Shown here: piece by piece, positions 17,074 through 34,375 of the stretch
How the letters are laid out: each line of letters starts with the position of its first letter
Position numbering within the stretch: the stretch's first letter is position 1
Assembly: GCF_000069185.1 (NCBI RefSeq)
Contig: NC_010397.1
Coordinates: 434,001 to 498,000, forward strand
From: Mycobacteroides abscessus ATCC 19977
Lineage (GTDB): Bacteria; Actinomycetota; Actinomycetes; Mycobacteriales; Mycobacteriaceae
DNA: 64,000 nucleotides
Direction: 5' to 3'
The notes under the pieces: generated by a model
Seen by the model: only the letters and a program-made list of their open reading frames with translations
Told to the model about the DNA's origin: nothing
Databases searched by the model: none
Made by a program: the position numbers and the translations under genes

Positions 17074-17100
17074 AACATATACCCCCTAGGGGTATATGTT
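17074..17100. promoter_or_regulatory. RicR/CsoR-type copper operator in front of copB-like gene
   Basis: AACATATACCCC-CTA-GGGGTATATGTT, perfect 12-bp arms. TATGTT at its right end serves as a -10 box, and the GTG start codon follows after 6 bases, so a bound repressor would cover the promoter. Confidence 0.85.
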
Positions 17101-17106
17101 GGGTGG

Positions 17107-19260: not shown

Positions 19261-19418
19261 CCCGGCCGGGGCATTGACGGGCCGACAGCACGTGGGGCCA
19301 ACGGATTCAGGCGCTTGCCTAAACGGGTCCAGCACCTGCGGCGGCGCCGACATGCGGCCCGGCAGCGGTTGCGTTAGCGCGCAGCTGCCGCGCCGCCTGC
19401 CGATCACCGCAGCAGCGC

Positions 19419-20726
19419 TCATCGGTCCCCGCCGACACCGCTTGCCCGGCCCGGGTCCAGGAGCCCGGCGCGCCGCAACGCCAAGAGCGCGGCAGCACAC
19501 ACCAGCGCGACAACCTCCAGTGACACCCACAATAACGAGGGCACACCGTGCTGCTGGCTGTAGCCGAACACCGAGCCGGTCAGCAGATTCCCCGCGAGAA
19601 TGCCGATACCGACGATGGTGTTGTACAGCCCGTAGTGGGTGGCCACCAACCGGTTGTCGGCCAGCCTGACCACGGTGTCCATCTCGAAGGGAAAAGTCGC
19701 GATGGTCCCCACGGCCAGCAGCGCCGCCGAGAACAGCAGCGCGGCGATCGCGGCGAGTTGCCCTGCCGACGCCGCTGTGGGCAGCAGCGCCAGCGGTACG
19801 AACGCCGTTCCGATGACCAGCATCCCGAGTACCAGACTGCGACTGGGACCAAAGCGTGCGGAAAGCCAGCCGGTCAGGCGCACCTGACCCGCGATGGCCA
19901 CCAGCCCCGACACCACGAAGATGCTTGTCACCAACGCTGTTTCGGATTTCTTGTCGTCGGTGAGCAGCGCCGCCTGCAGCGGAAGTGCGAGGTACACCTG
20001 GAACGTCAGCACATACGAACCGATCATGGCTCCCGAGAACAACAGGAAGGCCTTGTTGGACACCACCGAACGCCAGCTGGTCAGCACCGGAGCACGGTCG
20101 GCGTTGCGCTCCGACTCTGCCCGGTTCGGCGGCAACGCCATCAACTGAATCACCGTCAGGAATGCGAAAACCGCCGCGGCGACAGCGCAGGTGATCCGGA
20201 AGTCCCAGGCCGTCAACGCCAAGCCGACGATCGGTCCGAAAAGGATGCCCGCCTGGTAGAAGACGTTGAACACCGCGAAGGCCTCTACCCGGCGCTCACC
20301 GGAGTCGGCGGCCAGGTAGGCACGCACCGCCGGGTTGAAGAGAGCACCGGCGAAACCCGTTGCCGCCGAGGCGATCAATATCGCCGGAAGAGTACCGACG
20401 AACGCCAGCATCGCAAATCCGGCGGTCCGCAAGAAGCATCCGGCGACAATCAGCGGCTTGTACCCGAACCTGTCGGCCAGCGTGCCACCAACCAGAAACA
20501 TGCCCTGCTGAGAGAAGTTGCGGACCCCGAGCACCAGTCCCACCATCCACGCGGCCAAGCCCAAGGGCCCGGCCAGATATCCGGCGAGATACGGCATCAG
20601 CATGTAGAAGCCGACATTGATGGCGAACTGGTTCACCATCAATATCTGGCTGGGCCGATCGAAAGACCGGAACTGGCCAAACACGGTCTGGCCAGTTCCG
20701 GGTGCTCTCAGGTGCGCATCGGTCAC
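19419..20726 (-). CDS. MFS transporter (Rv0849-like)
   Basis: A 435-residue major facilitator protein with about 12 hydrophobic segments and the loop 2-3 motif [13 protein letters not shown]. Its place as last gene of an lpqS-cysK2-MFS unit is the same as Rv0849 in the M. tuberculosis RicR regulon, which supports orthology. GTG 20726 overlaps the cysK2 stop (GTGA). The substrate is unknown; a link with cysteine or a copper-binding thiol is inferred from the operon only. Confidence 0.85.
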
Positions 20727-21823
20727 GCCGTGCGTCCGAGCGGGTCGATCACATGGGTGAGCCTGGTCCATCGGTCCACCACCCGCTGCGACGGATCGTC
20801 AATCACGTCGGGATCTTGCGCCGGCGGGCGGTCCAGCAGATCGTGGCTGCGGCAGTAATCGTCATCGTAGATCGTGCCGTGATAGCGCATCGGGCCGTCG
20901 GGGAAGATGGCGGCCACCCGGGTACCGGGCTCTGAGGTGCGTGCCACCCAGCCCGCCACCAACGCGACTGCTCCGACGCTCCATCCGCCGCTGGCGTGAT
21001 AACTGGCGGCCAGCGTGCGGGCGGCCCAGACAGCCTCATTGGGCGCAACCCAATGGGCTTCGTCGAACGCCCGATAGTCGACATTGCCCGGGTAGATGCT
21101 CGAACCGAGCCCGCGCATCAGCCGGGTGCTGGCAGGCTGCCCGAATATCGTCGACCCGATGGTGTCGACACCCACCAGCCGCAGGTTCGGATTATGTTCG
21201 CGCAGTACCCGTCCCACCCCCGACGAGTGTCCACCGGTACCCACCGAGCACACCAGCGTGTCGACGGTGCCGAGCTGGTCGATCAGCTCCTCGGCCACGC
21301 CGCGGTAGGCGTCGACGTTATCGGGATTCTGATACTGATCGGGGCACCACGAATCCGGTTCGGCGGCTAGTATTTCGGCGACGCGATCCTTGCGTGCCTG
21401 CTGCCAGCCCCCGATCGGGTGCGGTTCGGTCACGATGTCCACCACGGCGCCGTAGGCGGTGAGCATCTGCACGATGATCGGTTCTAGTCCCGGGTCGGTG
21501 ACGAGTGTGACCGGGTGACGGTAGATGATGCCGGCCAGCGCCAGCCCCAAACCCAATGTTCCGCTGGTTGATTCGACAATCATGGCGCCGGGCTTGAGGT
21601 CGCCGCGCTCGCGGGCACGCTCGACCATGTAGAGGGCGGGCCGGTCTTTCATGCCGTTGGGGTTATGGGCTTCGAGTTTGGCCCAAAAACCGGTCCCTGG
21701 GCCCGAGAAGGGTTCGGACACCCACAGCACCGGGGTGTTGCCCACCAAGGTGTTGGGGTCGTGAAACTTCGGGCCCAGGTGGGTGCAGCTACGGCGAGAG
21801 GACAGCGCAATGTTGTTGTTCAT
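20723..21823 (-). CDS. cysK2: CysK2-like PLP-dependent cysteine synthase homologue
   Basis: A fold-type II PLP enzyme. The PLP lysine is in [11 protein letters not shown], and [13 protein letters not shown] and [13 protein letters not shown] are the substrate and phosphate loops of the cysteine synthase family. ATG 21823 is used; an in-frame GTG at 21904 would add 27 residues with no family similarity. In M. tuberculosis CysK2 makes S-sulfocysteine and belongs to the RicR operon with lpqS and an MFS gene, the same order as here. The 3' end overlaps the MFS gene. Confidence 0.85.
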
Positions 21824-21934
21824 GAAGGAAAAGTCCCTGCGTGAGGGGCCACCAGGAAGCGGCCGCAAGATGGTCACGGGCGTATGGGCAGCCCTCAGCG
21901 ACACAGGTCGCTGCGCCAGCCCAGCAGGTGATCC

Positions 21935-22384
21935 TCAGCGGCGGATAATGCACAGATCGGTCAAAAGGATCCGCCCGAAGCGCGGGGTTATGCGGTGGCT
22001 GCGCTGCGGAGGCCCCCGTCCGGTATGGGTGGACCACCACATCGCGCCAACACCGGCGCCCAGAACGACAGCGACCACCCACAACGCACGCAGCGGATTA
22101 TCGGCGCGGGCGCTGATCGCCGCGGCCAGGTCCATAACCGAGCACCACGCGGCGTGGATGGCAGTACCGGCGTGCGGATGAGCCGATATCGCAGCAGGAT
22201 TGGGTGCGGCAATGCCCGAGACGGTGATCAGTACCTGATGGTGATGTTCGGGACGCACGTGTTGGTTGGCATCGGCAAGACAATGCGCCACTGGCACACC
22301 CAGGGCCACCGCGATACCGGCCAGCAGCGCCACCAGCCCCAGCCGTACCCGGCCAGAGCGAGGGCGCCGGCCCCAGATCCTCAT
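21935..22384 (-). CDS. lpqS: LpqS-like protein 1
   Basis: A 149-residue exported protein. After an N-terminal hydrophobic segment it has a lipobox-like AHC, a His cluster (QHVRPEHHHQ), a central HAAWCSV, a second membrane segment and the ending GRGPP...LLTDLCIIRR. The RGPP motif and a final C-x2-RR tail are shared with Rv0847 (LpqS) and with four more proteins in this window. The three cysteines and the His cluster suggest metal binding at the cell surface. It heads the cysK2-MFS operon. ATG 22384 follows TAGGTT by 6 bases: leaderless. Confidence 0.82.
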   Translation of the reverse strand: MRIWGRRPRSGRVRLGLVALLAGIAVALGVPVAHCLADANQHVRPEHHHQVLITVSGIAAPNPAAISAHPHAGTAIHAAWCSVMDLAAAISARADNPLRALWVVAVVLGAGVGAMWWSTHTGRGPPQRSHRITPRFGRILLTDLCIIRR

Positions 22385-22405
22385 AGCATCAACCTACCAC
22401 AGCAA

Positions 22406-22430
22406 TCATATACCCCTACCGGGTATGTGA
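22406..22430. promoter_or_regulatory. RicR/CsoR-type operator of lpqS1-cysK2-MFS
   Basis: TCATATACCC-CTACC-GGGTATGTGA, 9 of 10 arm positions paired, just upstream of the -10 box of lpqS1 on the minus strand. Confidence 0.8.
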
Positions 22431-22454
22431 TCAGATCGTGATGCGTCGGGGCCG

Positions 22455-23009
22455 CTAGGGAGTCTCGGCGGGGGCAGGGGGCTGCCCGTGCGGGTCTTCC
22501 AGGACGGGTGGCGTCGGTGCGCCGGGCATGACAGTGGGTGCGACGGCCTCGGTACCGGCGATGCTCTGTGGGGGGCGCCCGTAGGGATCTTCCAGCGCGG
22601 GGTTTTCATTGCCTGCCGCGAACTGCACACCGGTGGTGCTCGGCGCCGAGGCCGGCCGCACGCCCCCGGCGATTCCATATCGGGTGCTGGAGGAGGTTTG
22701 GATGTTCGGCGGATGCGCGGCATTGCCGAGCTTGCTGCCTGGAAGCCCTGCAGCGGTGGCCGCCGGATCGGCGTTGGTGGAGATCTTGATCCCGCGCGCG
22801 TCCACCGCGGCTGGCGCCACCGCCGGGAAGTTGTAGTAGCTGTAGGTGTAGCTGCCCGGAACAGCCGGCAGCGGCGCGGGCACCGCCGGGATGAACGGGA
22901 TCGGCGGTGCCGGGTCTGCCGCGGCCACGGAGGCGGTGAGCGCGGCCAGCACGCCGGCCAGGATGCTTGCTGCGCCCACCGCGGGCGCCAGGAGGCGTGT
23001 CGTAATCAT
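22455..23009 (-). CDS. Secreted Pro/Ala-rich hypothetical protein
   Basis: A 184-residue protein with an N-terminal signal peptide (ASILAGVLAALTASVAAA|DP) and a low-complexity Pro/Ala body. The tail has a repeated motif, LEDPYGRPP and LEDPHGQPP. It has no enzyme motif and no cysteine in the mature part. The start has a GAAGGAC site. It lies 46 bp downstream of copZ and shares its operator, so it belongs to the copper response; a role at the cell wall is a guess. Confidence 0.7.
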   Translation of the reverse strand: MITTRLLAPAVGAASILAGVLAALTASVAAADPAPPIPFIPAVPAPLPAVPGSYTYSYYNFPAVAPAAVDARGIKISTNADPAATAAGLPGSKLGNAAHPPNIQTSSSTRYGIAGGVRPASAPSTTGVQFAAGNENPALEDPYGRPPQSIAGTEAVAPTVMPGAPTPPVLEDPHGQPPAPAETP

Positions 23010-23055
23010 CTAGATGTCCTTCACAGGTTTCGGGGATTGACAGGGGTGGCGGCCT

Positions 23056-23262
23056 TTAGCTGGCCAGTGCGTAGCCGGCGGCGCGGATCGCGGCGTGCAC
23101 CGCCTCGGCGGGCAGCGGCCCGCTACTGGTCACGGTGACGGTGCCGGTAGCCACGTCCACCTGCACGCCGGTGACACCGGGCACGGCAGCCACCTGTTCA
23201 CGCACCGCCGCCACGCAGTGCCCACAAGTCATGCCCGAGACCTTCAGCGCCGTCGTACTCAT
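23056..23262 (-). CDS. CopZ-type copper chaperone (HMA domain)
   Basis: A 68-residue ferredoxin-like HMA protein with the metal motif MTCGHC at residues 11-16 and the usual VPGVTGVQVDVATGTVTV strand pair. It should bind Cu(I) in the cytosol and hand it to an exporter such as the ATPase at 17107. A clear AAGGAGGT site precedes the ATG. The promoter has a TACGTT -10 box about 15 bases from the RicR-like palindrome, so unlike the lpqS genes it has a leader of about 30 bases. Confidence 0.92.
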   Translation of the reverse strand: MSTTALKVSGMTCGHCVAAVREQVAAVPGVTGVQVDVATGTVTVTSSGPLPAEAVHAAIRAAGYALAS

Positions 23263-23298
23263 TGAGAGACCTCCTTGCTCGCGCCAACGTATCGACAG

Positions 23299-23317
23299 GC
23301 TACCCCCGTAGGGTTAT
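23299..23317. promoter_or_regulatory. RicR/CsoR-type operator of copZ
   Basis: GCTACCCCCGTAGGGTTAT, imperfect TACCC...GGGTTA palindrome upstream of copZ; another copy for the divergent lpqS2 begins 86 bases further on. Confidence 0.7.
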
Positions 23318-23402
23318 GACTGCAGGGCGTAGAGGAACAATCCGGTCCGGTCTTGTGCGCCAACAGTGATCCGGATGACCGAGCCTCTGTTCATCTTCTG
23401 GC

Positions 23403-23422
23403 CATATACCCCCTACGGGTAG
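23403..23422. promoter_or_regulatory. RicR/CsoR-type operator of lpqS2
   Basis: ATATACCCCCTACGGGTAGC, placed 12 bases before the TACGGT -10 box (23435-23440) of lpqS2. Confidence 0.8.
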
Positions 23423-23446
23423 CGCGCTGGGGTGTACGGTGGGGTG

Positions 23447-23923
23447 ATGGCGCTCACCGGCGATCGTGCCCGCGCCCGCAGCGGCCGCGCCGCGGCGGCG
23501 CGATGGGTGGTGCCGTTGACGCTGCTGTTGACACTGGCTGCCGCACTCTTCCCGGCGCTGCGGTGCTCCCCGGCGCTCGATGCGCACGACCCATACGGTG
23601 CGGGTGTATCGGCGGCGCGCGCCGCGGCGGCGGCCCAGGCCGTGCGGGCCCCGCAGATCGCGGTACACGCGATGCACAGCACCGCGGCACAGGGCGTGAA
23701 TGTTCACTCCGGGTGCCAGCTGCCGGCGGCGGTCCTTGCGACCATGGCCGCCGCCGGCCCCGGCCACGGGTGGTGGACCCTGGTGGTTGCGGCCACCGCA
23801 CTGCTGGCTGCTGCCGCCGCGGCATGGGTGCCCGCCTCGCGCGGACCACCCGAGCGTGGCCAACTCGGCTCTTTGTGCAGTGGACGTGCACGTTTGCACC
23901 ATTTCTGCGTGCTGCGGCGCTGA
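23447..23923 (+). CDS. LpqS-like protein 2
   Basis: A 158-residue member of the LpqS-like set: N-terminal membrane segment ending in ALRC, a central cysteine (VHSGCQLP), a second membrane segment, then SRGPP and the tail LHHFCVLRR. ATG 23447 comes 6 bases after TACGGT, so the mRNA is leaderless. It heads the longest unit of the island: small His/Gly-rich peptide, (V/I)QC peptide and YoaK-like protein follow on the same strand. Confidence 0.8.
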   Translation: MALTGDRARARSGRAAAARWVVPLTLLLTLAAALFPALRCSPALDAHDPYGAGVSAARAAAAAQAVRAPQIAVHAMHSTAAQGVNVHSGCQLPAAVLATMAAAGPGHGWWTLVVAATALLAAAAAAWVPASRGPPERGQLGSLCSGRARLHHFCVLRR

Positions 23924-24018
23924 CCAGCTGTCCGCCGGTGCCAACGCGGCTCCGGCGCACGGTCAACGCATCCACTCGTGGCCACCGTGCGGTGGCCCCT
24001 TCACGCAAGGAATCACCC

Positions 24019-24303
24019 ATGCTCATCAACTCTGTTCACCGCGTACCTGTTCGCCGTGCCCTGGCGGCAATGGCCGCACCCCTGGCCGCCGCCGCGCTGA
24101 CCCTGTCAACTCCGGCACTCGGCTACGCCGCTGGCCCGGACCCGGCATCGCCGGCAACGATCAGCGCCGCCGGGCCCGCACCGGCCGGCCCCGGCTGCCG
24201 GCACCACAACTGCTGGCCCCGCCCTGGCTGGGGCGGCGGACACGGCGGCGGCTGGGGCCACGGCAGCTGGGGCGGACACGGCGGCTTCGGCGGGCACCGC
24301 TAA
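24019..24303 (+). CDS. Small secreted Gly/His-rich protein
   Basis: A 94-residue protein with a signal peptide (AAMAAPLAAAALTLSTPALGYAA, cut near residue 38) and a mature part ending in a Gly/His/Trp-rich stretch (CRHHNCW, then GGGHGGGWGHGSWGGHGG). The His and CxHHxC-like residues could hold copper. The start has an AAGGAA site. Known relatives are not recalled; function is inferred from composition and place. Confidence 0.65.
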   Translation: MLINSVHRVPVRRALAAMAAPLAAAALTLSTPALGYAAGPDPASPATISAAGPAPAGPGCRHHNCWPRPGWGGGHGGGWGHGSWGGHGGFGGHR

Positions 24304-24466
24304 CCCCCGAACCGGTGCCGCCCCCGCCAACTTGCGTCCACGCGGGGGCGGCACCTCCTCACCGACATCCGCCAGCGGCCCCGCCGACGGCGTGTCCCTG
24401 ACCTTCGCAGGCCTACCGACACCACCCCGTACCACCAATGCTGCTGCAATCCAAGGACATTCACTC

Positions 24467-24868
24467 ATGACGCCAGCTCTCAGAGCATCCACGATCGGAC
24501 CCATGGCGACCGCGCTGAGCGCACCGCCGCGAACATCACGGCGCTCACTCAAGGCGCCCCCTAGGCACCTGGCCGTAGGAGCGCTGTCCGCGGCCGTGAG
24601 CGCGGTGATGCTGGCCGCCCCGGCCGCTGCCGGGCCAGGCGAACCTGGACCGCAAGCCCCTGGCAACGCGCAGATCATCATCACTGAGTTGAAGACCCGC
24701 GGCGATCAGGTCATCATCAACGGCGATACCACCGGTAAACCGTTAGCCAAGTGCACCGCCACCGCGGTGCGGGTCGGGCGGCACATCTACAACCAGGTGC
24801 CGCAACGCAAAGGCCCACCGACGCGCACCCTGGCCGCGCACGTCATGTACGTCACGGTGCAGTGCTAG
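24467..24868 (+). CDS. Small secreted (V/I)QC protein A
   Basis: A 133-residue exported protein with an extended signal region (hydrophobic core VGALSAAVSAVMLAAPAAAG); ATG 24503 is another possible start. The mature part carries a motif shared with the proteins at 27243 and 30652: a helix, RGDQVIINGDTTGKPLAKC, a T-x-VR strand and the C-terminal YVTVQC. Two cysteines are invariant, one central and one as last residue, fit for a disulfide or metal site. Its stop overlaps the start of the YoaK-like gene (GTGCTAG). Confidence 0.72.
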   Translation: MTPALRASTIGPMATALSAPPRTSRRSLKAPPRHLAVGALSAAVSAVMLAAPAAAGPGEPGPQAPGNAQIIITELKTRGDQVIINGDTTGKPLAKCTATAVRVGRHIYNQVPQRKGPPTRTLAAHVMYVTVQC

Positions 24869-25635
24869 ACGCCGCCTGCGGGGGCCGCGGGCGGCTACTT
24901 GCGTTGGGCTACAACGGGTCTTTGGCCGCGGTGGCCGGCTACGTCAATTCGGTGGCGCTGTTGGTGTGGGTGTTTCCGGTGGGCAATCTGACCGCGCTGA
25001 CCACCCGGGTGGGTATGCATGCGAGCAATCCGCTGCTGGATTCGGGCCGCATGATCGCGGCGATCGTGGCTGGCTTTGGTGCCGGTGTCATCGCCGCCGG
25101 TGCGGTGCTGGCCCCAACGCGGACCCACACCGGCTCACGCCAGGCTGCGGTGCTGGTGGCTGAGGCGGCGCTGCTGGTGGCGGCTGCGGGAATCGAGCAC
25201 CCGCTGATCCGGGCGCCGCTGGCCGCCGCCGCATGCGGATTGCAGAACGGGATGACGTCGGGATTTCCGTCGATGGCCGTGCGGACCACACATTTCACCG
25301 GGACGCTTACTGATCTGGGGCTGCTGCTGGCCCGCAGCTACCACCACGGAGTGGATCGGTGGCGGGCCGCGATCCTTACGGCCACGGTGTCAGCCTTCAT
25401 CGCCGGTGCGGCTGTAGGGGTGATCATCGCCGGACGCATCGGTGATCACGCGCTGATCCCAGCCGCCGCGGTCTGTGCCGCGCTGGCCGCCGCCAATCTG
25501 CATCACCACCGCGGCCGGCCGCGACGGGCGGCGTCAGCCAGCCAACGCGGCGAACCCGAGAACACCGGTGAGGACACCGGTGCGGACACCTTGGTGGCGC
25601 CCGGGGGCGCGGCCGGCCGCAGCGAGCAGCCATGA
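24862..25635 (+). CDS. YoaK-like membrane protein (DUF1275)
   Basis: About 257 residues with six or so hydrophobic segments. The pattern AVAGYVNSVALL ... GNLTALTT at the front and GLQNGMTSGFPSMAVRTTHFTGTLTDLG in the middle are DUF1275 (YoaK) hallmarks. GTG 24862 overlaps the previous stop by 7 bp, so translation is coupled to the secreted peptide. The C-terminal tail is hydrophilic and repetitive (GEDTGADT). The transport role of this family is unproven. Confidence 0.75.
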   Translation: MLDAACGGRGRLLALGYNGSLAAVAGYVNSVALLVWVFPVGNLTALTTRVGMHASNPLLDSGRMIAAIVAGFGAGVIAAGAVLAPTRTHTGSRQAAVLVAEAALLVAAAGIEHPLIRAPLAAAACGLQNGMTSGFPSMAVRTTHFTGTLTDLGLLLARSYHHGVDRWRAAILTATVSAFIAGAAVGVIIAGRIGDHALIPAAAVCAALAAANLHHHRGRPRRAASASQRGEPENTGEDTGADTLVAPGGAAGRSEQP

Positions 25636-25666
25636 GGACTGCCGAATCAGCTGGTTTACGCCCCGA

Positions 25667-26533
25667 TCATTGGGGCCCGCCGGGGTTTTGGCCTGCGATG
25701 TCGGTGATCGGCAGATTGGGTGCTGGTTGGGGTGAGGGCGTGGCCGGCAGAACAGGGATCTGGGCGGGCGGAATGTCGTGAATGTCGTTGACGGGCGGAC
25801 CGTTTTCGCGGCCCCCGTAACTGGTGCCGGGAGCGCGGTCGCCGAGCAGGTGGCTGACGGTGACCATGTGGTAGCCATTGGCAATCAGCACCGGCAGGAA
25901 CTGGTAGACGATATCGACGGTGCTCGAGTAGGTGTCGTGCAGCAGCACCACCGAACCGGGTTTGATCTGGGTTTTGAGCATGTACACGGTGGCGGCGGTA
26001 TCGGCGTCATTGATCCAGTCGAACGGTATGACATCCCACAAGATTTCGGCCAAATGCTGACGGCCCGCCTCGGCGCGCACCGCCGCATTCGATACTCCCC
26101 CAGCAGGCCGGTACAGATGCGGGGCGATCCCGGTGGCCGCCGCGATCGCCTCGACACCTTTGCTGAGCTGGGCGCCGATATCGGCGGTGGGGATGGTGGC
26201 CATATTGGGGTGCTCCCAGGTGTGGTTGGCCACCTCCATCCCCGCCGCGGCGATGCGCCGGGCCGCAGCAGGGTCAGCGGCGACCTTGTTACCGATCAGG
26301 AAAAACGTGGCCTTGGCGCCGCGGTCAGTCAGCGTCTGCAACAACCGGTCGGTAAACGGCGTGGGGCCATCGTCGAACGTCAGTGCCACACATTTGTAAC
26401 GGGAGCAGTCCACCGTGTCCGGGCCCAGCAACAACCGGTGGCGCACCCCGATGCCGACCACCCCGGCCGCGGCCACCAGCACCACCGCGACCGCCGCTAT
26501 CTGAAATCGCACCGAATCGAGCACTGTACCCAC
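25667..26533 (-). CDS. Polysaccharide deacetylase (NodB domain)
   Basis: A 288-residue protein with an N-terminal membrane anchor (residues 9-30) and a NodB catalytic domain: motif 1 TFDDGP (~50), motif 2 HTWEHPN with metal His residues, motif 3 RPAGG, and later VVLLHD. It should remove acetyl groups from a cell-wall polysaccharide or peptidoglycan outside the membrane. GGAGGTG precedes GTG 26533; a longer frame upstream overlaps lpqS3 and is discarded. The Pro-rich tail is unusual. It is divergent from lpqS3, with a copper operator between them that may serve both. Confidence 0.88.
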   Translation of the reverse strand: MGTVLDSVRFQIAAVAVVLVAAAGVVGIGVRHRLLLGPDTVDCSRYKCVALTFDDGPTPFTDRLLQTLTDRGAKATFFLIGNKVAADPAAARRIAAAGMEVANHTWEHPNMATIPTADIGAQLSKGVEAIAAATGIAPHLYRPAGGVSNAAVRAEAGRQHLAEILWDVIPFDWINDADTAATVYMLKTQIKPGSVVLLHDTYSSTVDIVYQFLPVLIANGYHMVTVSHLLGDRAPGTSYGGRENGPPVNDIHDIPPAQIPVLPATPSPQPAPNLPITDIAGQNPGGPQ

Positions 26534-26660
26534 AGATCCACCTCCTGCACCTATTCGGCAAGCGCCGGCCGCGCCCTGTGCACCGCAACCGGGCCATACC
26601 CGTGGGGGGCATCCTTGCACGCGTTCCTGGACATCATCTGCCCACCCGCCAATAAGCCAG

Positions 26661-26675
26661 TACCCGGTAGGGGTA
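26661..26675. promoter_or_regulatory. RicR/CsoR-type operator of lpqS3
   Basis: TACCCGGTAGGGGTA, directly before the TAGGAT -10 box at 26681-26686. Confidence 0.8.
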
Positions 26676-26693
26676 GTGGCTAGGATGGGGTGC

Positions 26694-27134
26694 ATGCGGA
26701 TGCGCCCGGTCCGGGGGTATCGTCGCCGCCGCCAACGGGGTGCGGCAGCGTTGGTGCTCGTGGCCGCCGTGGCGGTGGTCGCCGCCCTGGGGTGCCTGAC
26801 CGGTGCGCCCCGTTCCTGGTCAACTGCGGGCCCAGGCGGGACGGCCCATGTCGCCCGAGGCCCCGTCAGCGAGATGGCGCTGCCATTTTTGCGTGCGGCG
26901 GCTGACCCGGTGGGGGCAGATCTGCACGCGCCGTGCCCGCACGCGCAGCTGAGCGCGACGACGCGTGCCGGGGGCAACATGCCTTTGATGGGGGCCGTGC
27001 CGATGGTGCTCGGCGCCTTGGCCGCCGCAGACGCGGAGGCCGGGGCACTCGTGCGGGGGCCGCCGCCCCGGGCCCGCGTGGCAGCCGCCGGCGGCCCGAT
27101 GTCTTTACATCAGCTCTGCGTTATTCGGCGCTGA
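26694..27134 (+). CDS. LpqS-like protein 3
   Basis: A 146-residue member of the LpqS-like set: a lipobox-like ALGC after the first membrane segment, a central LHAPCPHAQL with His next to Cys, a second hydrophobic segment, VRGPP and the tail LHQLCVIRR. ATG 26694 follows TAGGAT by 7 bases (leaderless). The (V/I)QC protein B follows 108 bp downstream. Confidence 0.8.
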   Translation: MRMRPVRGYRRRRQRGAAALVLVAAVAVVAALGCLTGAPRSWSTAGPGGTAHVARGPVSEMALPFLRAAADPVGADLHAPCPHAQLSATTRAGGNMPLMGAVPMVLGALAAADAEAGALVRGPPPRARVAAAGGPMSLHQLCVIRR

Positions 27135-27242
27135 GGAAACACCTGCCGATGTCTGGCCATTGTGGCCGCGAGGCATCGGCTTTCTGGTGTCCTTCGACAG
27201 CTCCTGCCGCCTGCGTGCGGCACCCCAACGTAGGGAATTCTC

Positions 27243-27578
27243 ATGGGCAACAAACGTTTTCTTCGCCGCACCGGGACCGCTGTCGTGGCCGCTGTTGCTG
27301 CGGCGACTGTGGCCGGGGCCGGTAGCGCCTGGGCGGGACCTGCTGCCCCCAATGCGCTGCAGGTCATCATGGCGCTGCAGCGCCAAGGCGACAAGGTCAT
27401 CGTCAACCGCCGCGGGGGCAAGCCGCTGCAACTGTGCACCGTGACCTCGGTACGCCAAGGCAGAGCCGAGTATTGGTGGACCCATCCGCAGGTGGTGGAT
27501 CCCAACCGTGCCAAACGCGCTAACGGGGTGGGCACGCAACTGCTGTACCGCACCATGTACGTCGACGTGCAGTGCTGA
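27243..27578 (+). CDS. Small secreted (V/I)QC protein B
   Basis: A 111-residue exported protein with signal peptide (VVAAVAAATVAGAGSAWA|GP). The mature part matches protein A: LQRQGDKVIVNRRGGKPLQLC, TSVR, an aromatic loop and C-terminal YVDVQC. Two cysteines only. GTAGGGAA ribosome site. Only a 31-codon frame starts at the overlapping GTG after it, so unlike proteins A and C it has no coupled downstream gene. Confidence 0.75.
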   Translation: MGNKRFLRRTGTAVVAAVAAATVAGAGSAWAGPAAPNALQVIMALQRQGDKVIVNRRGGKPLQLCTVTSVRQGRAEYWWTHPQVVDPNRAKRANGVGTQLLYRTMYVDVQC

Positions 27579-27663
27579 TCGGCCGCTGCCGCCACCGACT
27601 GCCAGCGGCGTGTAGCGGGGCCGGCCGGTGGCGGCAGCGGGTTCTCGGGCTTGCGGTGCTGGG

Positions 27664-28305
27664 TTAGGCTCCGGCAGGGGTTGGCCCGCAGCACGGGCAG
27701 TCGGTGCCGGGTGCGGCGGCGGGCAGGTCCTTACAGCACGGGCAGTCGGCCTTCATGGCCTTCATGTTGGCTTGCATCTTGGCTTTCATCGCCGGGTCCA
27801 TGGCCGTGTTCGCAGACGTTCCCATCGCGGCCTCGCAGCACCACATCATCGCCGGCGCACCGGCGCCCACGGTGTAGACCACGGCCACCGGATCTGGCCC
27901 GGTGACATCAAAATATATGGTGCCCGAAGATGATTGGCCCTCAGCGAGCGTGGTGGCGGGCAGGCCTTGATCGGTGGCCACTTGCCAGAGCACCGGGTAG
28001 TGCCCGCCCATGGCGTGGGCGGCCAGATTAGGGATGAGTGGGGTGATGGTGCCCCGCTCGGCGCGCACGGTTGCCGAGGCTTCCCACAGCTGACCGGCCG
28101 GGGCGTAGCCGGGCAAGACGGCGGCCGACTTCTTCAGGCCGGTGACGGTCCATTCCTGGCTGCCGCCGGCGTCGGCCAGTTGTTGGGCGGCCCCGAAGCG
28201 GTGCGGACAGGACCCGGCGGCATGCCCTAACGGTGGGGCCAGCAGCCCACCGAGGAAAAACCCGGCCGTGGCCAGGGCCAGTGCGAGGGGACGCAGTGCA
28301 CCCAT
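27664..28305 (-). CDS. MPT63-like secreted protein (DUF1942) with Cys/Met-rich tail
   Basis: A 213-residue protein with a signal peptide (to about residue 30) and a DUF1942/MPT63 beta-sandwich: EWTVTGLKKSAAVLPGYAPAGQLWEA, the TPLIPNLAAHA strand and SSGTIYFDVTGPDPVAVVY. After the normal end of the domain it carries an added tail with CC, a run of Met and Lys residues and two CPCC motifs, like a metal-binding arm. It lies 91 bp downstream of mmcO with its own AAGGAG site, so the pair probably forms an operon. Copper capture outside the cell is inferred from the tail. Confidence 0.8.
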   Translation of the reverse strand: MGALRPLALALATAGFFLGGLLAPPLGHAAGSCPHRFGAAQQLADAGGSQEWTVTGLKKSAAVLPGYAPAGQLWEASATVRAERGTITPLIPNLAAHAMGGHYPVLWQVATDQGLPATTLAEGQSSSGTIYFDVTGPDPVAVVYTVGAGAPAMMWCCEAAMGTSANTAMDPAMKAKMQANMKAMKADCPCCKDLPAAAPGTDCPCCGPTPAGA

Positions 28306-28396
28306 GGTGATCTCCTTATGCGTAGTCGTGTAGTCGATGGCACTTTCCCGCTGATCGACACCGATGGCCGGGCAGCGACACCTTTGGTGTTCAGGG

Positions 28397-29935
28397 CTAT
28401 TGGCGGTAGGAGACGACGGTCATCATTCCGGCTTCGCCGTGATAAATGTTGTGGCAGTGGGTCAGCCACTGGCCCGGGTTATCCGCATCGAAGTCGACTT
28501 CGACGGTCTGCATGGGTGCCACCAGCACGGTGTCTTTGCGGGCGCCGTAGGCCCCGGATGCGGTCCGCACGGCGAAGGTGTGCCCGTGCAGGTGCATCGG
28601 GTGAAACATCATGGAGTTGTTGATGAAGCGCAGCCGCACCCGCTGGCCCTCGCGCACCGGCAGCCCCTCGGCCGGGTTGTAGGTTTTCTCGTTGATCGTC
28701 CAGGAGTATTTGTTGCCCGGCCCCGCCAGGCGCAGATCGTAGGTGATGTCGGGTTCACCGACAGCCAGCGTGACCTCCTCAGTGGCGCTCAGGGACGCGG
28801 TGTCTAATGCCGCCAGCTTCGGTAGCGCCGCGGCCGCCTCGGCGGCCGAACCGGACACGGGTGTGCCGCTCGAGCGCAGGACCAACTGGGCGTAGCCGTC
28901 CTTGCCGTAGGGGGCTGCCAGCAGCGGCACCGAGACCTCACCGACAGTGATGATGGCATCGATGCGCTCACCCATACCGATCAGCAGTGCATCGGTTTGC
29001 CGCGGCTGCACGGGGAAGCCGTCGGTGTGAGTCACCGTCAGCGGTGTCCCGGGGATCGCGACCCGAAATGCGCTGTCGCCGGCGGCGTTGATGATCCGCA
29101 GCCGCACCCGGGTCCCGGGCCGGTAGTCGACGCTCTGCGGATCGGCGGCCACCCGCCCGTTGATCAGGTAGTACGGGTAGGTGACGTCGCCGCCGTCGGC
29201 CCCGAGAGGCGCCTGCGCACTGACGCCCATCGAACCAATCGACATCCCCGGCATATCGCCCATCGAGTGCCCCATCCCGGGCATGCCTTTGTCCCGGAGC
29301 CCGGCCAATACTTTGTCGGGGTCGGTGCCGGTGCCATCGATCCAGTCATCGAGTGCCACGACCAGTTCGGTGTCGTAGTCGGCGCGCTCATCGGGGTCTT
29401 CCACGATCAGCGGCGCATACAGACCCCGATCCAGCTGGGTGCCCACATGCGGATGAAACCAGTACGTGCCCGCGTGGGCCAGGGCGAATTCGTAGGTGAA
29501 CGATCCCGCTGCCGCGATCTGCGGCTGCGTCAGATCCGGCACCCCGTCCATGTCGTTGCGCAACGCGATCCCATGCCAGTGCACCGTGGTGGGCGCCGGC
29601 AGCCCATTGGCCACGGCCACCCGCAGCACCTCGCCCTTGCGGGCCCGGATCGTGGGCCCGGGAATCTGGTCGCCATAACCCCACGTGGAAACGGTCGTGC
29701 CGGCCAGATCCAGCTGCAGCGGCCGCGCGGCCAAATTCACCGGCACCAATCGGCCGCCCCCGTCGCGGCGGACCGCTTCGAGCGCGCCCACTCTCGGTGA
29801 GCTCGGCCCCACCGGCTGCCCGCTGGGCCCGCGCACCGGCCGCGTGCCGCAGGCGGCCAGCACCCCGGCCGCCGCGGTGGCCGCACCCAGCTGCAAGAAC
29901 CCGCGCCGACCCCATTGCGATCGCGACACCGCCAT
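28397..29935 (-). CDS. mmcO: Multicopper oxidase MmcO
   Basis: A 512-residue multicopper oxidase. A twin-arginine signal (GRRGFLQLG) is followed by a lipobox (LAAC), so it should be an exported lipoprotein. All copper-site motifs are present: HWHG (~119), HPH, HPMHLHGHTF and HCHNIYHGEAGMM near the end. A Met-rich stretch (GMPGMGHSMGDMPGM) in the middle is like that of CueO-type oxidases. It should oxidise Cu(I) to the less toxic Cu(II). GAAAGGAG precedes the ATG. It is divergent from lpqS4 across one shared operator, as Rv0846c is from Rv0847 in M. tuberculosis. Confidence 0.95.
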   Translation of the reverse strand: MAVSRSQWGRRGFLQLGAATAAAGVLAACGTRPVRGPSGQPVGPSSPRVGALEAVRRDGGGRLVPVNLAARPLQLDLAGTTVSTWGYGDQIPGPTIRARKGEVLRVAVANGLPAPTTVHWHGIALRNDMDGVPDLTQPQIAAAGSFTYEFALAHAGTYWFHPHVGTQLDRGLYAPLIVEDPDERADYDTELVVALDDWIDGTGTDPDKVLAGLRDKGMPGMGHSMGDMPGMSIGSMGVSAQAPLGADGGDVTYPYYLINGRVAADPQSVDYRPGTRVRLRIINAAGDSAFRVAIPGTPLTVTHTDGFPVQPRQTDALLIGMGERIDAIITVGEVSVPLLAAPYGKDGYAQLVLRSSGTPVSGSAAEAAAALPKLAALDTASLSATEEVTLAVGEPDITYDLRLAGPGNKYSWTINEKTYNPAEGLPVREGQRVRLRFINNSMMFHPMHLHGHTFAVRTASGAYGARKDTVLVAPMQTVEVDFDADNPGQWLTHCHNIYHGEAGMMTVVSYRQ

Positions 29936-29995
29936 GAACCGCTCCTTTCATGTCCTTTCATGCCGCCTGAGTCAGCTGCGGAAAACACATGTCAA

Positions 29996-30012
29996 ATACC
30001 GGGTAAGGGTAT
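29996..30012. promoter_or_regulatory. RicR/CsoR-type operator shared by mmcO and lpqS4
   Basis: ATACCGGGTAAGGGTAT between the divergent mmcO and lpqS4 genes, 13 bases before the TATGGT -10 box (30026-30031) of lpqS4. Confidence 0.8.
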
Positions 30013-30037
30013 GCGCACATCATGTTATGGTGAACCT

Positions 30038-30532
30038 GTGTTGCCGTCCACAGGCGAGCTGCAACCTGGCGGGAAACCCTCGCTCAGGTGGCGGGCGATG
30101 ATCGCCACCGGTGCCAGCACCCGGCAGGGTGCGTCGTGGCTCGGTGCCCTGATGGTGGCCGCGATGATCGCCTTGGTGCTGCTGGTGCAGTGCGTGGGGG
30201 CCGGCCACCACAACACCACGGTGGCCGCGCCGCCGCACCACGCGGTGGCCGCCGGATCGCCGGTGCAGCGCAGCGCGGCCGTGATCGCGCCGCACGACCA
30301 CCTCTCTGCCCCGGTTGCCGCCGTGTGCGCCGCGGCGGACGTTGTTGTCGCACAGTTGTCGGCGCCTACCGCGGCCCGCGTGCTGTGGATCGCCGCGGTC
30401 GCCGCGCTGGCCTGGACGGCGATGATCGCACTGGCCCCGGCGTTGACGCGGGGCCCGCCGCCACATACCCGGCCGGCGGTCATCACTGCTGGCGCCACCC
30501 TCGTACATCGCCTCGGCGTGCTGCGTCGCTGA
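30038..30532 (+). CDS. LpqS-like protein 4
   Basis: A 164-residue member of the LpqS-like set from GTG 30038, 6 bases after TATGGT (leaderless). It has LLVQC after the first membrane segment, a His-rich part (GHHNTTVAAPPHHAV), central VAAVCAAADVV, a second membrane segment and TRGPP. The tail reads LVHRLGVLRR: the last cysteine of the family is replaced by glycine, the only such case of the five. It is followed by (V/I)QC protein C and an ABM protein. Confidence 0.8.
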   Translation: MLPSTGELQPGGKPSLRWRAMIATGASTRQGASWLGALMVAAMIALVLLVQCVGAGHHNTTVAAPPHHAVAAGSPVQRSAAVIAPHDHLSAPVAAVCAAADVVVAQLSAPTAARVLWIAAVAALAWTAMIALAPALTRGPPPHTRPAVITAGATLVHRLGVLRR

Positions 30533-30651
30533 TCGCGGCTTGGCCCGGTGTATCGCGCTGCCGTGCGCGGGCTCGGGTCGTTTTTGCCGACCGTCAGCTA
30601 TTGCTGCGCCCTGTCAGGGGTGTGGCCTCGCACGTACAGAGGTTCTTTACC

Positions 30652-30993
30652 ATGAACAACATTTTGCGCGGCCGTGTCACGGGATTGGCCGTGGCCGCTA
30701 GTGCCGTAACCGCTGCTGTGACAGTGCTGTTGGCTCCGGCCGCTCATGCCGGGCCTGGTGGTCTCGGGGACGCCGATGATGTCATTAACAGTCTTAAAGC
30801 CCAGGGCAACAAGGTTATTGTCACCAAGACTGGCAACAAGCCGATGCCGCAATGTGTGGCCACCCGGGTCCGCAAGGACCTGGATGTCTACGGCGGTACC
30901 CCTTCGACGAACTGTCCCAACTGCAATGGGGCATCGCGCCGAAATCAAGTTGTGCGGCTCTACAGCGTTTACCACGTGGACATTCAGTGCTGA
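30652..30993 (+). CDS. Small secreted (V/I)QC protein C
   Basis: A 113-residue exported protein with signal peptide (LAVAASAVTAAVTVLLAPAAHA|GP). It shares with proteins A and B the block LKAQGNKVIVTKTGNKPMPQC, TRVR, and ends YHVDIQC. It also has an inserted CPNC, so four cysteines in all. The stop overlaps the GTG of the next gene (GTGCTGA). Confidence 0.75.
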   Translation: MNNILRGRVTGLAVAASAVTAAVTVLLAPAAHAGPGGLGDADDVINSLKAQGNKVIVTKTGNKPMPQCVATRVRKDLDVYGGTPSTNCPNCNGASRRNQVVRLYSVYHVDIQC

Positions 30994-31391
30994 CCGGCGC
31001 CGCCGGGGCCTGCGCGCCGGTGTATGTCTGTGGTGAGGTCACCGCGACACTGGGCGCTGAGGACACGGTGTGGGGTCTGCTCAATGTGCTGCTGGAACGC
31101 ACCCGTTACGACCCGGGCAATCTGGGCTACGAAATTTTCCGGGACGCCGGGGACCTCGGCCATTTCCTGATACAGCAGACCTGGAAAACACCGCAGCTGG
31201 CCGAGCGTCACCTGCGTTCGGCGGCGGTGAGCTGGTGCATCACCAGAATCCAAGAGGCGGCCCACATCCCGCTGCGCCTGACGGTCTGCGATGTGCATCG
31301 GGGACACAGCAAGCCGGCGCCGCCGCCACTGCGGTCACCCTTGAGCACCCCTGCCGGTGTGTGGGCACCCTCCCCGGGCTCCTCGTGTTGA
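30987..31391 (+). CDS. ABM-type (quinol) monooxygenase-like protein
   Basis: About 134 residues from GTG 30987, overlapping the previous stop by 7 bp. The central part follows the antibiotic-biosynthesis monooxygenase fold: TATLGAEDTVWGLLNVLLERTR, then PGNLGYEIFRDAGDLGHFLIQQTWKTPQLAERHLRS (pattern split by helix and strand), as in small dimeric quinol monooxygenases. The tail is Pro-rich and atypical. The role in copper stress is unknown; a redox function would fit. Confidence 0.65.
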   Translation: MLTGAAGACAPVYVCGEVTATLGAEDTVWGLLNVLLERTRYDPGNLGYEIFRDAGDLGHFLIQQTWKTPQLAERHLRSAAVSWCITRIQEAAHIPLRLTVCDVHRGHSKPAPPPLRSPLSTPAGVWAPSPGSSC

Positions 31392-31424
31392 ACTGCACCG
31401 CCCGCGGGCACACCCCGAACGTGT

Positions 31425-31439
31425 ACCGGCTAGGGGTAC
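31425..31439. promoter_or_regulatory. RicR/CsoR-type operator of lpqS5
   Basis: TACCGGCTAGGGGTA, 13 bases before the TAGCGT -10 box (31453-31458). Confidence 0.75.
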
Positions 31440-31465
31440 CCGTGGCCGGTGATAGCGTGCCGGCC

Positions 31466-31900
31466 ATGACAACCGGCAGGCCCCGGGCCCGCCGGCGGGT
31501 GCTGGTGGCGCTGCTGATCGGTGTGCTCGCTGCGCTTCCCGCAGGAATGCATTGCCTGCACGGGCCGGGCCAGCCCGGCCGCAGCCCTGTCGTTCAGGGG
31601 CGCCCCAGCATCACCTCGGCAGCGGCACCGCAGGTCGGCGCCAACGGCGGGGTCCTGACGCATCGACGCGCCGATAACGCCAGGCATACCGCGCTGTGCC
31701 ACAGCGTCGAGGTGCTCGTTGCCACGGTGCGCGCCGACCCCGGGCTCGGACTGCTGGCCGCGTTGACTGCGGCGATCGCGGCCGCCGCAGTCGCGGCGCC
31801 GCTGTGGGCCCGCGTCGATCGGGGCCCTCCCGTGCGCGCCGCGGCGAGACCGCGGTCAGGGCGTGTCCTACTCAACGATTTGTGCATCATCCGGCGGTGA
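31466..31900 (+). CDS. LpqS-like protein 5
   Basis: A 144-residue member of the LpqS-like set. It has AGMHC after the first membrane segment, central HTALCHSVEV, a second hydrophobic segment, DRGPP and the tail LLNDLCIIRR, closest to LpqS-like protein 1. ATG 31466 follows TAGCGT by 7 bases: leaderless. A carbonic-anhydrase-like gene follows 195 bp downstream on the same strand. Confidence 0.8.
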   Translation: MTTGRPRARRRVLVALLIGVLAALPAGMHCLHGPGQPGRSPVVQGRPSITSAAAPQVGANGGVLTHRRADNARHTALCHSVEVLVATVRADPGLGLLAALTAAIAAAAVAAPLWARVDRGPPVRAAARPRSGRVLLNDLCIIRR

Positions 31901-32095
31901 CCGGCCGGTGCAACCTGGTGATGGCGTCATCGGACACCGGATGTGCAGCGCTGTGATCGACCCGTCGGGTCGGGTGCCTCGCTGTGTCTGCGTGTCATGG
32001 GCCGCCGCCGGGCTTGTTTGCCGATTCGCCAACCTTCCATCCGGCCCGGCATGCCACCGGTGTGCTGTGTGCTGCTTCCCGATTGGGGCACCTTT

Positions 32096-32656
32096 ATGAA
32101 CTCGTTCCTGGCCACCGACACCACGGCCTACCCTGACGCGCTGTACCTGACCTGCTCGGATTGGCCTGTGGGACCACCGGCCGACGGCTGCGCACCGCTG
32201 TACACAGTCCGTAATGCCGGCAACCTGGTACCCACCGACCCGGCCGAAGGATCAGTGGATGCCGCACTGGATTTCGCGCTCAACCACCTGCACGTGCGTT
32301 CGGTAGTGGTGTGCGGACATTCGGGCTGCGGCGCGATGGGAGCGTTGCTGTCCGAACCGATCGATGCGCCCACCAGCGCGGTGGGCCGCTGGCTCGACAA
32401 TGCCCGCGACACCCTGGCTGCCTATCACGAGCATCACCTGGCCCGCGTGGGCGCCGCAGCCAGCGGCTTTAACCAGGTCGACCAGCTCGCGGTGGTCAAC
32501 GTCGCGATTCAAAGCCAGCGCCTGGTGCGCCATCCGCTTCTGGCCGCCGCGGCACACTCGGGGCGCCTGCGGGTGGCGGGCACCTTCTACAGCCTCGGTG
32601 CCCAGCTCCTGTATGAAGTCACCGCGACCGGTCTCCCCGCGCCAGGAGCCCGCTGA
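32096..32656 (+). CDS. Beta-carbonic anhydrase homologue with altered dyad
   Basis: A 186-residue beta-class carbonic anhydrase-like protein. The zinc ligands are in place: Cys in LYLTCSDW (~20), His and Cys in VVCGHSGCGAM (~75-82), and the AGNLV loop is normal. The usual CSDSR motif reads CSDWP, so the arginine that pairs with the catalytic aspartate is missing. The N-terminal helix that packs the dimer is short. It may be a weak enzyme or a metal-binding protein. Start ATG 32096; no strong ribosome site. It probably belongs to the lpqS5 unit. Confidence 0.8.
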   Translation: MNSFLATDTTAYPDALYLTCSDWPVGPPADGCAPLYTVRNAGNLVPTDPAEGSVDAALDFALNHLHVRSVVVCGHSGCGAMGALLSEPIDAPTSAVGRWLDNARDTLAAYHEHHLARVGAAASGFNQVDQLAVVNVAIQSQRLVRHPLLAAAAHSGRLRVAGTFYSLGAQLLYEVTATGLPAPGAR

Positions 32657-32710
32657 ACGCCGCAGCGTCTGGCAGGTTGTTGCGGCGCAGGGAAACAAAG
32701 GTGGCTTGGC

Positions 32711-34275: not shown

Positions 34276-34354
34276 CTGCGCCCCTTCGTATCCCAGAACG
34301 ATGCTCGTTATCTTCTGACCTTCTTGCTGCGACGAGACCCTGCCACAGACGACT

Positions 34355-34371
34355 ATACCCCTACGGGGTAT
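34355..34371. promoter_or_regulatory. RicR/CsoR-type operator of the hydrolase gene
   Basis: ATACCCC-TAC-GGGGTAT, perfect arms; outermost copy on the right of the island. Confidence 0.82.
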
Positions 34372-34375
34372 ATGC

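What the first reader, a model, noticed from the sequence alone, without database searches (positions are those of the whole stretch)
21935..31900. Five LpqS-like proteins in one island
Proteins at 21935, 23447, 26694, 30038 and 31466 share: membrane segment, Cys just after it, a central Cys, second membrane segment, RGPP and a final (L/F)C-x2-RR tail. M. tuberculosis has a single LpqS of unknown function. The fixed three-Cys pattern, often with His nearby, points to a surface copper-binding family that has expanded. Protein 4 alone has lost the last Cys (LGVLRR).
Basis: partly seen in the sequence, partly recalled or inferred. Interest (0 to 1): 0.85.

Follow-up and report, generated by a model that had tools for sequence, protein, structure and literature searches.

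The report
LpqS: copper-sensing leader gene cassette
Five related small genes in one likely copper-resistance island of a mycobacterium, members of a family named after an unexplained tuberculosis 'lipoprotein' (LpqS), each carry a ribosome-arrest-type motif near their end and stand just ahead of another gene, so they are likely built-in copper sensors predicted to switch that next gene on while they themselves are being made, rather than copper-binding surface proteins.

Summary
In detail: five LpqS-like ORFs share two hydrophobic segments, Cys, RGPP and an (L/F)C-x-x-RR end; P4 lost the last Cys. The genome has one more clear copy and one divergent one. The interpretation should change. In 114 homologues the steady parts are not three Cys but HxH in the exported loop (98), arrest-type R[GAS]PP (113), 20-23 residues from it to the end (113) and a TGA stop (114). 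A same-strand gene follows. In most homologues examined the gap holds a conserved RNA: the last lpqS codons pair with the stretch before the next AUG, with strong covariation (rows not used in training: 23 of 29 pairs changed on both sides; 0 of 500 shuffles as good). RicR-type operators precede all five ORFs, three weakly. Best reading: a metal-tuned RGPP arrest peptide gating the next gene, like CruR and CutF but outside DUF2946, with its own RNA switch, copied before different targets. Arrest, copper binding and direction are untested; the window's own RNAs are divergent and support the helix for P2 and P3 only. The lipoprotein label is unsupported (lipobox-like 7 of 114). My searches of an open-access library found no such account of LpqS.

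The parts
21935..22384 (-). P1, LpqS-like leader ORF (ends LCIIRR-TGA)
   Evidence: NF052429 53.6 bits; RGPP 23 residues before the end
21824..21934 (-). gap between P1 stop and cysK2 ATG (111 nt)
   Evidence: ORF-end x pre-AUG pairing not above shuffles here, z +0.3
20723..21823 (-). cysK2-like gene, controlled by P1 (inferred)
   Evidence: PF00291 4.2e-50
19419..20771 (-). MFS transporter, next in the P1 unit
   Evidence: PF07690 1.3e-35
22409..22427 (.). RicR/CsoR-type operator before P1
   Evidence: 13 of 14 positions
23447..23923 (+). P2, LpqS-like leader ORF (ends FCVLRR-TGA)
   Evidence: NF052429 21.5 bits, under cut-off
23405..23423 (.). RicR-type operator before P2
   Evidence: 12 of 14
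23924..24018 (+). P2 gap RNA; lpqS end pairs with the stretch before the next ATG
   Evidence: duplex -19.1 kcal/mol, z -2.7 against shuffles
24019..24303 (+). His/Gly-rich exported-looking protein downstream of P2
   Evidence: sequence
26694..27134 (+). P3, LpqS-like leader ORF (ends LCVIRR-TGA)
   Evidence: NF052429 10.8 bits, under cut-off; RGPP and tail
26595..26613 (.). RicR-type operator before P3 (weak)
   Evidence: 11 of 14
27135..27242 (+). P3 gap RNA; Leu-Cys-Val codons CUCUGCGUU pair with AACGUAGGG before the ATG
   Evidence: duplex -19.9, z -3.1; fold
27243..27578 (+). small exported-looking protein downstream of P3
30038..30532 (+). P4, LpqS-like leader ORF, last Cys replaced by Gly (LGVLRR-TGA)
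   Evidence: NF052429 22.5 bits, under cut-off; relatives keep Cys
29995..30013 (.). RicR-type operator between P4 and mmcO (weak)
   Evidence: 11 of 14
30533..30651 (+). P4 gap RNA (start of next gene set by hand)
   Evidence: duplex z -1.3
30652..30993 (+). small exported-looking protein downstream of P4
28397..29935 (-). multicopper oxidase (mmcO-like), divergent from P4
   Evidence: Cu-oxidase domains, best 9e-41
31466..31900 (+). P5, LpqS-like leader ORF (ends LCIIRR-TGA)
   Evidence: NF052429 36.4 bits
31422..31440 (.). RicR-type operator before P5 (weak)
   Evidence: 10 of 14
31901..32095 (+). P5 gap RNA (195 nt to the ATG I chose; other in-frame starts at 96 and 150 nt)
   Evidence: duplex z -0.7; starts
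32096..32656 (+). beta-carbonic anhydrase downstream of P5
   Evidence: PF00484 1.6e-27 for the longer frame 31943-32653
17071..19260 (+). metal (likely Cu) P-type ATPase, perfect RicR-type operator at 17078-17096
   Evidence: PF00122; operator

Best explanation
Each of the five LpqS-like ORFs lies directly upstream of another gene and is most likely a leader protein whose own translation is predicted to sense exported-side copper and to gate translation of that next gene. Shown by sequence: an N-terminal hydrophobic segment, a loop with HxH and/or Cys mostly at near-fixed distance from a ribosome-arrest-type R[GAS]PP, a second hydrophobic segment, a tail of near-fixed length, a TGA stop, then a next gene on the same strand; in most homologues examined also a covarying RNA in which the last lpqS codons pair with the stretch just before the next AUG. 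Inferred: without copper the ribosome would arrest on RGPP, about 60 nt short of the stop; the lpqS end would stay bare, pair with the downstream start region and keep it shut. Copper held by the exported loop would relieve the arrest (by pulling or refolding the nascent chain), the ribosome would run to the stop, melt the helix and let the next gene be translated. RicR-type operators would add a transcriptional copper gate. Copies before cysK2, exported proteins and a carbonic anhydrase would give each its own gate.
For: (1) R[GAS]PP in 113 of 114, RGSP in P7; of 3 loci dropped by my filter one has RSPP, two lack the Arg. RGPP/RAPP are proven arrest motifs; RGPP is the strongest tested, the most excluded tetrapeptide in many phyla, and such ORFs stand before Cu-related genes in various lineages (PMC12992588, passages). 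(2) Rulers: RxPP to C-terminus 20-23 residues in 113 of 114; HxH to RxPP 48-53 in 94 of the 98 with HxH, central Cys to RxPP 37-42 in 41 of the 44 with one (searched 38-75 and 32-56 residues upstream). CruR also needs a near-fixed CXXC-RAPP spacing. (3) RNA: RNAalifold, given no structure, found the ORF-end/pre-AUG helix; training rows 10 of 29 pairs, other rows 23 of 29 pairs with both sides changed, 0 of 500 shuffles as good in either; native ORF-end/pre-AUG pairs beat mismatched ones in 66 representatives (0 of 20000 permutations; relatedness not corrected), a mid-gap control does not (p 0.71). (4) CGT at the second-last codon in 61 of 114 against 14% of Arg codons elsewhere in lpqS. (5) Copper: operator score of 10+ upstream of 57 of 114 loci, in 0 of 112 downstream control stretches; both Cys in 29 of 57 loci with operator, 5 of 57 without. 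(6) CysK2 follows in 91 of 114.
Against: No arrest, metal binding or expression was measured. In the window's own genome the RNA model gives no match in the genus scan; locally P6 scores E 0.013, P2 14.2 bits (E 0.26), no better than an unrelated place at 43849-43981 (14.1 bits), P4 11.7 bits out of register. ORF-end/pre-AUG pairing is unusual for P6, P3 and P2, not for P4, P5 or P1; P7 was not tested; 19 own-type copies show no covariation (p 0.55). The stop-codon hairpin shows no covariation. 57 of 114 loci lack a RicR-type operator and 47 of these lack both exported Cys, so the signal may not be copper throughout. P2, P3 and P5 have no HxH in the searched range. The tail is conserved as amino acids with free synonymous change at most positions, which the RNA alone does not explain. 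TGA is also common in downstream ORFs (90 of 107). Five odd loci have lost the full motif: L042, L075, L210, L216, L217. CutF works with the opposite sign (Cu promotes stalling).
Confidence: 0.67

Rival explanations
1. Same leader architecture with the opposite sign: copper (or another exported-side cue) prolongs ribosome occupancy at the end of lpqS, as in CutF, and the parked ribosome itself holds the start region of the next gene open.
For: CutF precedent: Cu delays export and lets a stem-loop on the cutO start unfold (PMC9973294, abstract and passages). In 66 representatives the last ~14 residues are conserved as protein (G 63, L 63, R 63, C 65, R 66) and TGA is the stop in 114 of 114, as if stalling at the stop mattered.
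Against: R[GAS]PP sits 20-23 residues before the end in 113 of 114; a ribosome arrested there would not cover the last codons.
Confidence: 0.15
2. LpqS proteins are true membrane copper-binding proteins; the RNA merely couples their translation to the next gene.
For: HxH in 98 of 114, exported Cys mostly in loci with a copper-type operator; family amplified; NCBI names it putative copper homeostasis (lipo)protein.
Against: Arrest-type motif at a near-fixed distance from the stop, covarying ORF-end/start helix, a same-strand start 95-125 nt after the stop in 103 of 114; lipobox-like motif in 7 of 114.
Confidence: 0.14
3. Cysteine-supply attenuator: the conserved Cys codon near the stop senses tRNA-Cys for cysK2, like polycysteine leader ORFs (recalled; seen here only as a reference title).
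For: Cys at -5 in 111 of 114, CysK2 downstream in 91 of 114.
Against: One conserved Cys codon only; P4 and L049 lost it; P2-P5 precede other targets; HxH and RGPP stay unexplained.
Confidence: 0.04

Closest known systems
CruR (Bp2923, DUF2946) of Bordetella pertussis
   Same: Small protein with an export signal heading a copper operon; Cys motif 45 residues before a C-terminal RAPP motif; Cu relieves arrest (PMC9426467: abstract, sections 9 and 10, passages).
   Different: LpqS is not DUF2946 (1 of 40 at E 0.11), has HxH/single Cys instead of CXXC, 20-23 residues after the motif (CruR three), and an RNA helix on the next start instead of a shown Rho site; output predicted ON, not OFF.
CutF (DUF2946-like) of Rhodobacter capsulatus
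   Same: Exported nascent Cu sensor whose translation opens an mRNA structure hiding the start of a multicopper-oxidase gene (PMC9973294: abstract, passages, section 12).
   Different: CutF has CXXXC and a Pro-rich end; its shielding stem-loop is intergenic, whereas here the last codons of the ORF itself are the anti-start strand.
RAPP/RGPP arrest peptides (ApdA, ApdP, RQH family, seven Streptomyces lividans proteins)
   Same: Small exported proteins with RAPP/RGPP near the end, before same-strand genes, some copper-related (PMC10987492, PMC12992588, PMC10951233, passages).
   Different: 'lpqs' and 'mycobac' do not occur in the main text of PMC12992588; LpqS has a longer conserved tail and a covarying RNA.
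LpqS/Rv0847 of the RicR regulon
   Same: Same family (NF052429); M. canettii LpqS has RGPP and ends GQDLLTRFCLARR; lpqS, cysK2 and mmcO are listed as RicR regulon genes of M. tuberculosis (PMC10470581, passages).
   Different: Here five copies in one island with different downstream genes. DNA of the M. tuberculosis locus was not seen.

Membership tests
LpqS family (NCBIfam NF052429) | profile score over 35 bits | tested here: inconclusive
   P1 53.6 and P5 36.4 bits pass; P4 22.5, P2 21.5 and P3 10.8 bits fail the cut-off though the match runs to the end of the profile
LpqS family (NCBIfam NF052429) | R[GAS]PP and C-x-x-R-R end (my reading of the family) | tested here: met
   all five RGPP; four of five C-x-x-R-R, P4 G-x-x-R-R
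DUF2946 (CruR/CutF) | Pfam PF11162 match | tested here: not met
   0 of 5 own at E <= 10; 1 of 40 family members, at E 0.11
DUF2946 (CruR/CutF) | CXXC/CXXXC metal motif | tested here: not met
   the five have a single central Cys; no Cys pair among the family's main columns
RAPP/RGPP arrest peptides | localization signal, motif near C-terminus, same-strand downstream gene | tested here: met
   two hydrophobic segments in 111 of 114, motif 20-23 from the end in 113, next start 95-125 nt away in 103
RAPP/RGPP arrest peptides | ribosome arrest at RAP/P | not testable with these tools
   needs toeprint or in vitro translation
RicR regulon | RicR-type palindrome upstream | tested here: met
   P1 13, P2 12, P3 11, P4 11, P5 10 of 14 positions; 0 of 112 controls reach 10. 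P3-P5 are weak; the motif was read from such upstream stretches and its RicR name is recalled
bacterial lipoproteins | lipobox-like [LVIFAM][ASTVIG][GAS]C at end of first segment | tested here: not met
   7 of 114, none of the window's five; P3 has a near-match ALGC
polycysteine Cys attenuators (recalled) | run of Cys codons near the end | tested here: not met
   one conserved Cys codon, at -5

The most novel reading that the evidence does not exclude
LpqS, including the M. tuberculosis protein, is not a lipoprotein with a job of its own but the sensor half of a movable two-part cassette: an exported-side metal-sensing RGPP arrest peptide fused, at its very last codons, to an RNA switch on the next gene's start. 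Mycobacteria copy the cassette (up to 11 per genome) to put new genes - cysK2, PE/PPE-like and exported proteins, oxidoreductases, carbonic anhydrase - under translational metal control.
Probability: 0.54. Interest if true: 0.87.

Novelty: new variant of a known kind. Interest (0 to 1): 0.77.

Why it matters
LpqS is a copper-regulated gene of unexplained function in the tubercle bacillus. If it is a nascent-chain sensor, an lpqS knock-out reads effects on cysK2 rather than a lost protein, mycobacteria have a second, translational copper gate behind RicR, and a known idea (CruR, CutF) gains a mycobacterial form in which the coding end of the sensor is itself the lock on the next gene. The RNA model and motif rulers make this directly testable and let new members be found by search.

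Tried and rejected
DUF2946 membership: rejected by Pfam; a scan for PF11162 in 101 genomes of the order gave 10 with a match at E <= 0.01 and 1 at the cut-off, inside a 554-residue frame. Known Rfam element: in ten homologue loci and in window 18000-36000 no match reached its family's gathering score. Stop-codon hairpin CGCUGA/UCAGCG: well paired but no covariation, so not claimed. Lipoprotein reading: lipobox-like 7 of 114. Covariation in own-type copies: not shown. Pfam's Caa3_CtaG hit to P1 (0.0099, under cut-off) is taken as chance. RNAalifold on a first alignment of 66 rows found almost nothing (-3.7); the 28-row set was then chosen by eye for good alignment. A protein search with 40 LpqS (7998 candidates scored, capped) gave 55 hits, 46 of them with precomputed Pfam PF26327, which is not among the 25 of 37 families that the local Pfam scan showed; I did not see that family's name.

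Selection to keep in mind: the 114-ORF set is 107 of 110 fetched homologue loci plus 7 own copies. Of the 110, 30 were best hits of the genus search (153 of 248 genomes match at E <= 0.01) and 80 I picked from its listed hits. The ORF filter required R[GAST]xP plus a C/G/R-x-x-R/H-x end, so motif counts are partly selected. Dropped: L042 (LGPP) and L075 (WGPP), tail kept in both, and L059 (RSPP, no stop after RR). For the RNA work 8 of the 107 were left out on sight for lack of the usual gap and start (L049, L061, L071, L074, L077, L090, L097, L114), 99 gave 66 representatives; some downstream starts were set by hand. Of the 55 loci searched (L207-L217) had been fetched because the model hit them; of the other 44, 42 match at E < 1e-4. 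Of those 11, 8 have an LpqS ORF by the filter; L216 and L217 have RGPA/RAPA with the tail, L210 only the tail.


Full report
Observation. Each has hydrophobic segments on both sides of a loop, RGPP, and a short tail ending in (L/F)(C/G)-x-x-RR directly before TGA. P4 alone has Gly for the last Cys; P4-type copies in four related genomes keep Cys. The genome has one more clear copy, P6, before a second cysK2/MFS pair next to a second multicopper oxidase, and a divergent one, P7.

Copper setting. The island also holds a metal P-type ATPase, a multicopper oxidase, a DUF1942 protein with a CPCC tail, and the cysK2-MFS pair. A TATACCC-N5-GGGTATA palindrome (I recall it as RicR/CsoR type) lies before P1 (13 of 14 positions), P2 (12), P3 (11), P4 (11) and P5 (10); of 114 loci 57 score 10 or more, of 112 control stretches taken downstream none. 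Genome-wide 12 sites have at most two mismatches, against 1 for the reversed control pattern; six of the 12 fall in the two LpqS islands.

Family. In the genus 153 of 248 genomes match at E <= 0.01, up to 11 matches each; in a draw of 298 genomes of the order, same genus included, 35 match at E <= 0.001. In 114 ORFs the constant parts are R[GAS]PP (113, plus RGSP), C at -5 (111), RR (99; RC 10, RI 5) and His columns filled in 90, 96, 104 and 100 sequences; exported Cys columns are filled in 26 and 34. Distances are ruler-like: RxPP to the end 20-23 residues in 113 of 114 (21 in 86), HxH to RxPP 48-53 in 94 of the 98 with HxH, central Cys to RxPP 37-42 in 41 of the 44 with one. Of the window's five, P1 and P4 have HxH in range, P2, P3 and P5 do not; all five have the central Cys at 40-42. 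Both Cys are present in 29 of 57 loci with an operator and 5 of 57 without (phylogeny not corrected).

What follows. The next gene, same strand, is CysK2 in 91 of 114; the start I took lies 95-125 nt after the stop in 103 of 114. In the window the five copies precede cysK2, a His-rich protein, two related small exported-looking proteins and a beta-carbonic anhydrase; for P5 the start is uncertain (96, 150 or 195 nt).

RNA. A first alignment of 66 representatives gave RNAalifold nothing useful. Aligned gap regions of 28 of them, chosen by eye (A1), give, with no structure supplied, three helices: the last codons of lpqS with the stretch before the next AUG, a long hairpin after the stop and a GC hairpin before the start. 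My version of that structure has 90.6% paired cells and 10 of 29 pairs changed on both sides, 0 of 500 shuffles as good. A covariance model from it was run on 55 other loci: 53 match at E < 1e-4, the other two being L101 (0.019) and L198 (0.47). Eleven of the 55 had been fetched as hits of the model; of the 44 chosen without it 42 match, five of them in another genus of the family. On these matches, 56 rows including one chance row, 23 of 29 pairs have both sides changed and the score is 0.222 against 0.133 shuffled, 0 of 500 (the alignment leans to the model). The ORF-end helix alone has both-side changes in 5 of 8 pairs. Without any alignment, native ORF-end/pre-AUG pairs are stronger than mismatched pairs in the 66 representatives (-16.9 against -15.5 kcal/mol, 0 of 20000 permutations); a mid-gap control window is not (p 0.71), and the signal lies in the last 15 nt (relatedness not corrected). 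The second-last codon is CGT in 61 of 114 against 14% of Arg codons elsewhere in lpqS. In the genus the model matches 52 of 118 genomes.

Own copies. Here the RNA is divergent: the model scores P6 at E 0.013 locally; P2 at 14.2 bits does no better than a chance place in the window, P4 is weaker and out of register, and the stricter genus scan finds nothing in the own genome. Folding suggests another register in which the Leu-Cys-Val codons (CUCUGCGU) pair with the SD-like ACGCAGGGA. This is unusual against shuffles for P6 (z -4.2), P3 (-3.1) and P2 (-2.7), not for P4 (-1.3), P5 (-0.7) or P1 (+0.3), and permutation over 19 own-type copies shows no covariation (p 0.55). So for the window's five the RNA part is supported for two and open for three.

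Mechanism. [quoted passage not shown] RGPP is the strongest variant tested and such ORFs stand before copper-related genes in various lineages, with seven S. lividans cases shown to arrest (PMC12992588, passages). In LpqS a ribosome arrested there would be about 60 nt short of the stop, with the second hydrophobic segment in the tunnel and the HxH/Cys loop outside, and the last codons would be free to lock the next start. Relief of arrest would bring the ribosome to the stop and open it. In CruR copper relieves a RAPP arrest (PMC9426467, abstract and section 9); in CutF copper promotes stalling (PMC9973294, abstract). I commit to relief = ON because the targets look like copper-defence genes behind a copper-derepressed type of promoter; the sign is inferred.

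Novelty. Searches for LpqS with leader peptide (0 papers), LpqS alone (45 papers, 25 listed), Rv0847/lpqS/cysK2 (13 papers), uORF/copper/mycobacteria sets and cysK2/leader/attenuation showed no description of LpqS as a leader among the listed titles and abstract starts and the passages I opened; subscription papers and preprints are not covered. NCBI calls it a putative copper homeostasis (lipo)protein. I file it as a new variant of nascent-chain metal sensors, not as a DUF2946 member.

Open. Why the tail is conserved as amino acids, why half the family lacks operator and mostly Cys, and why TGA is invariant (114 of 114; 90 of 107 in downstream ORFs) are not explained.

Noticed in passing
L008:12584-17132: Second locus in the same genome with a multicopper oxidase divergent from LpqS (P6)-cysK2-MFS and two operators; the window's P1-cysK2-MFS looks like a paralogous copy.
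   Followed up: partly
window 34354-34372: Perfect RicR-type palindrome at the listed 5' end of an alpha/beta-hydrolase ORF (33406-34377, -), so its true start is probably further in.
   Followed up: no
window 27664-28305: DUF1942 protein with a CPCC...CPCC tail beside mmcO, a possible metal-binding extension.
   Followed up: no
window 24332-24868, 27243-27578, 30652-30993; L007 1900-2200: Small exported-looking proteins ending V-x-V-x-C or V-D-I-x-C (related by my reading), no Pfam match for the two tested; three in the island, one more beside P7.
   Followed up: no
L047, L052, L074, L077, L090, L097, L114: In other mycobacteria LpqS-like ORFs stand before genes that read like PE or PPE proteins (my reading of their N-termini).
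   Followed up: no
L082, L084, L086, L094, L095: A subclass ending R-I instead of R-R, all five before an FAD-oxidoreductase-like gene (my reading), with a changed pre-AUG stretch.
   Followed up: partly
57 of 114 LpqS loci: Loci without a RicR-type operator mostly lack exported Cys (47 of 57 lack both), hinting at another metal or cue.
   Followed up: partly
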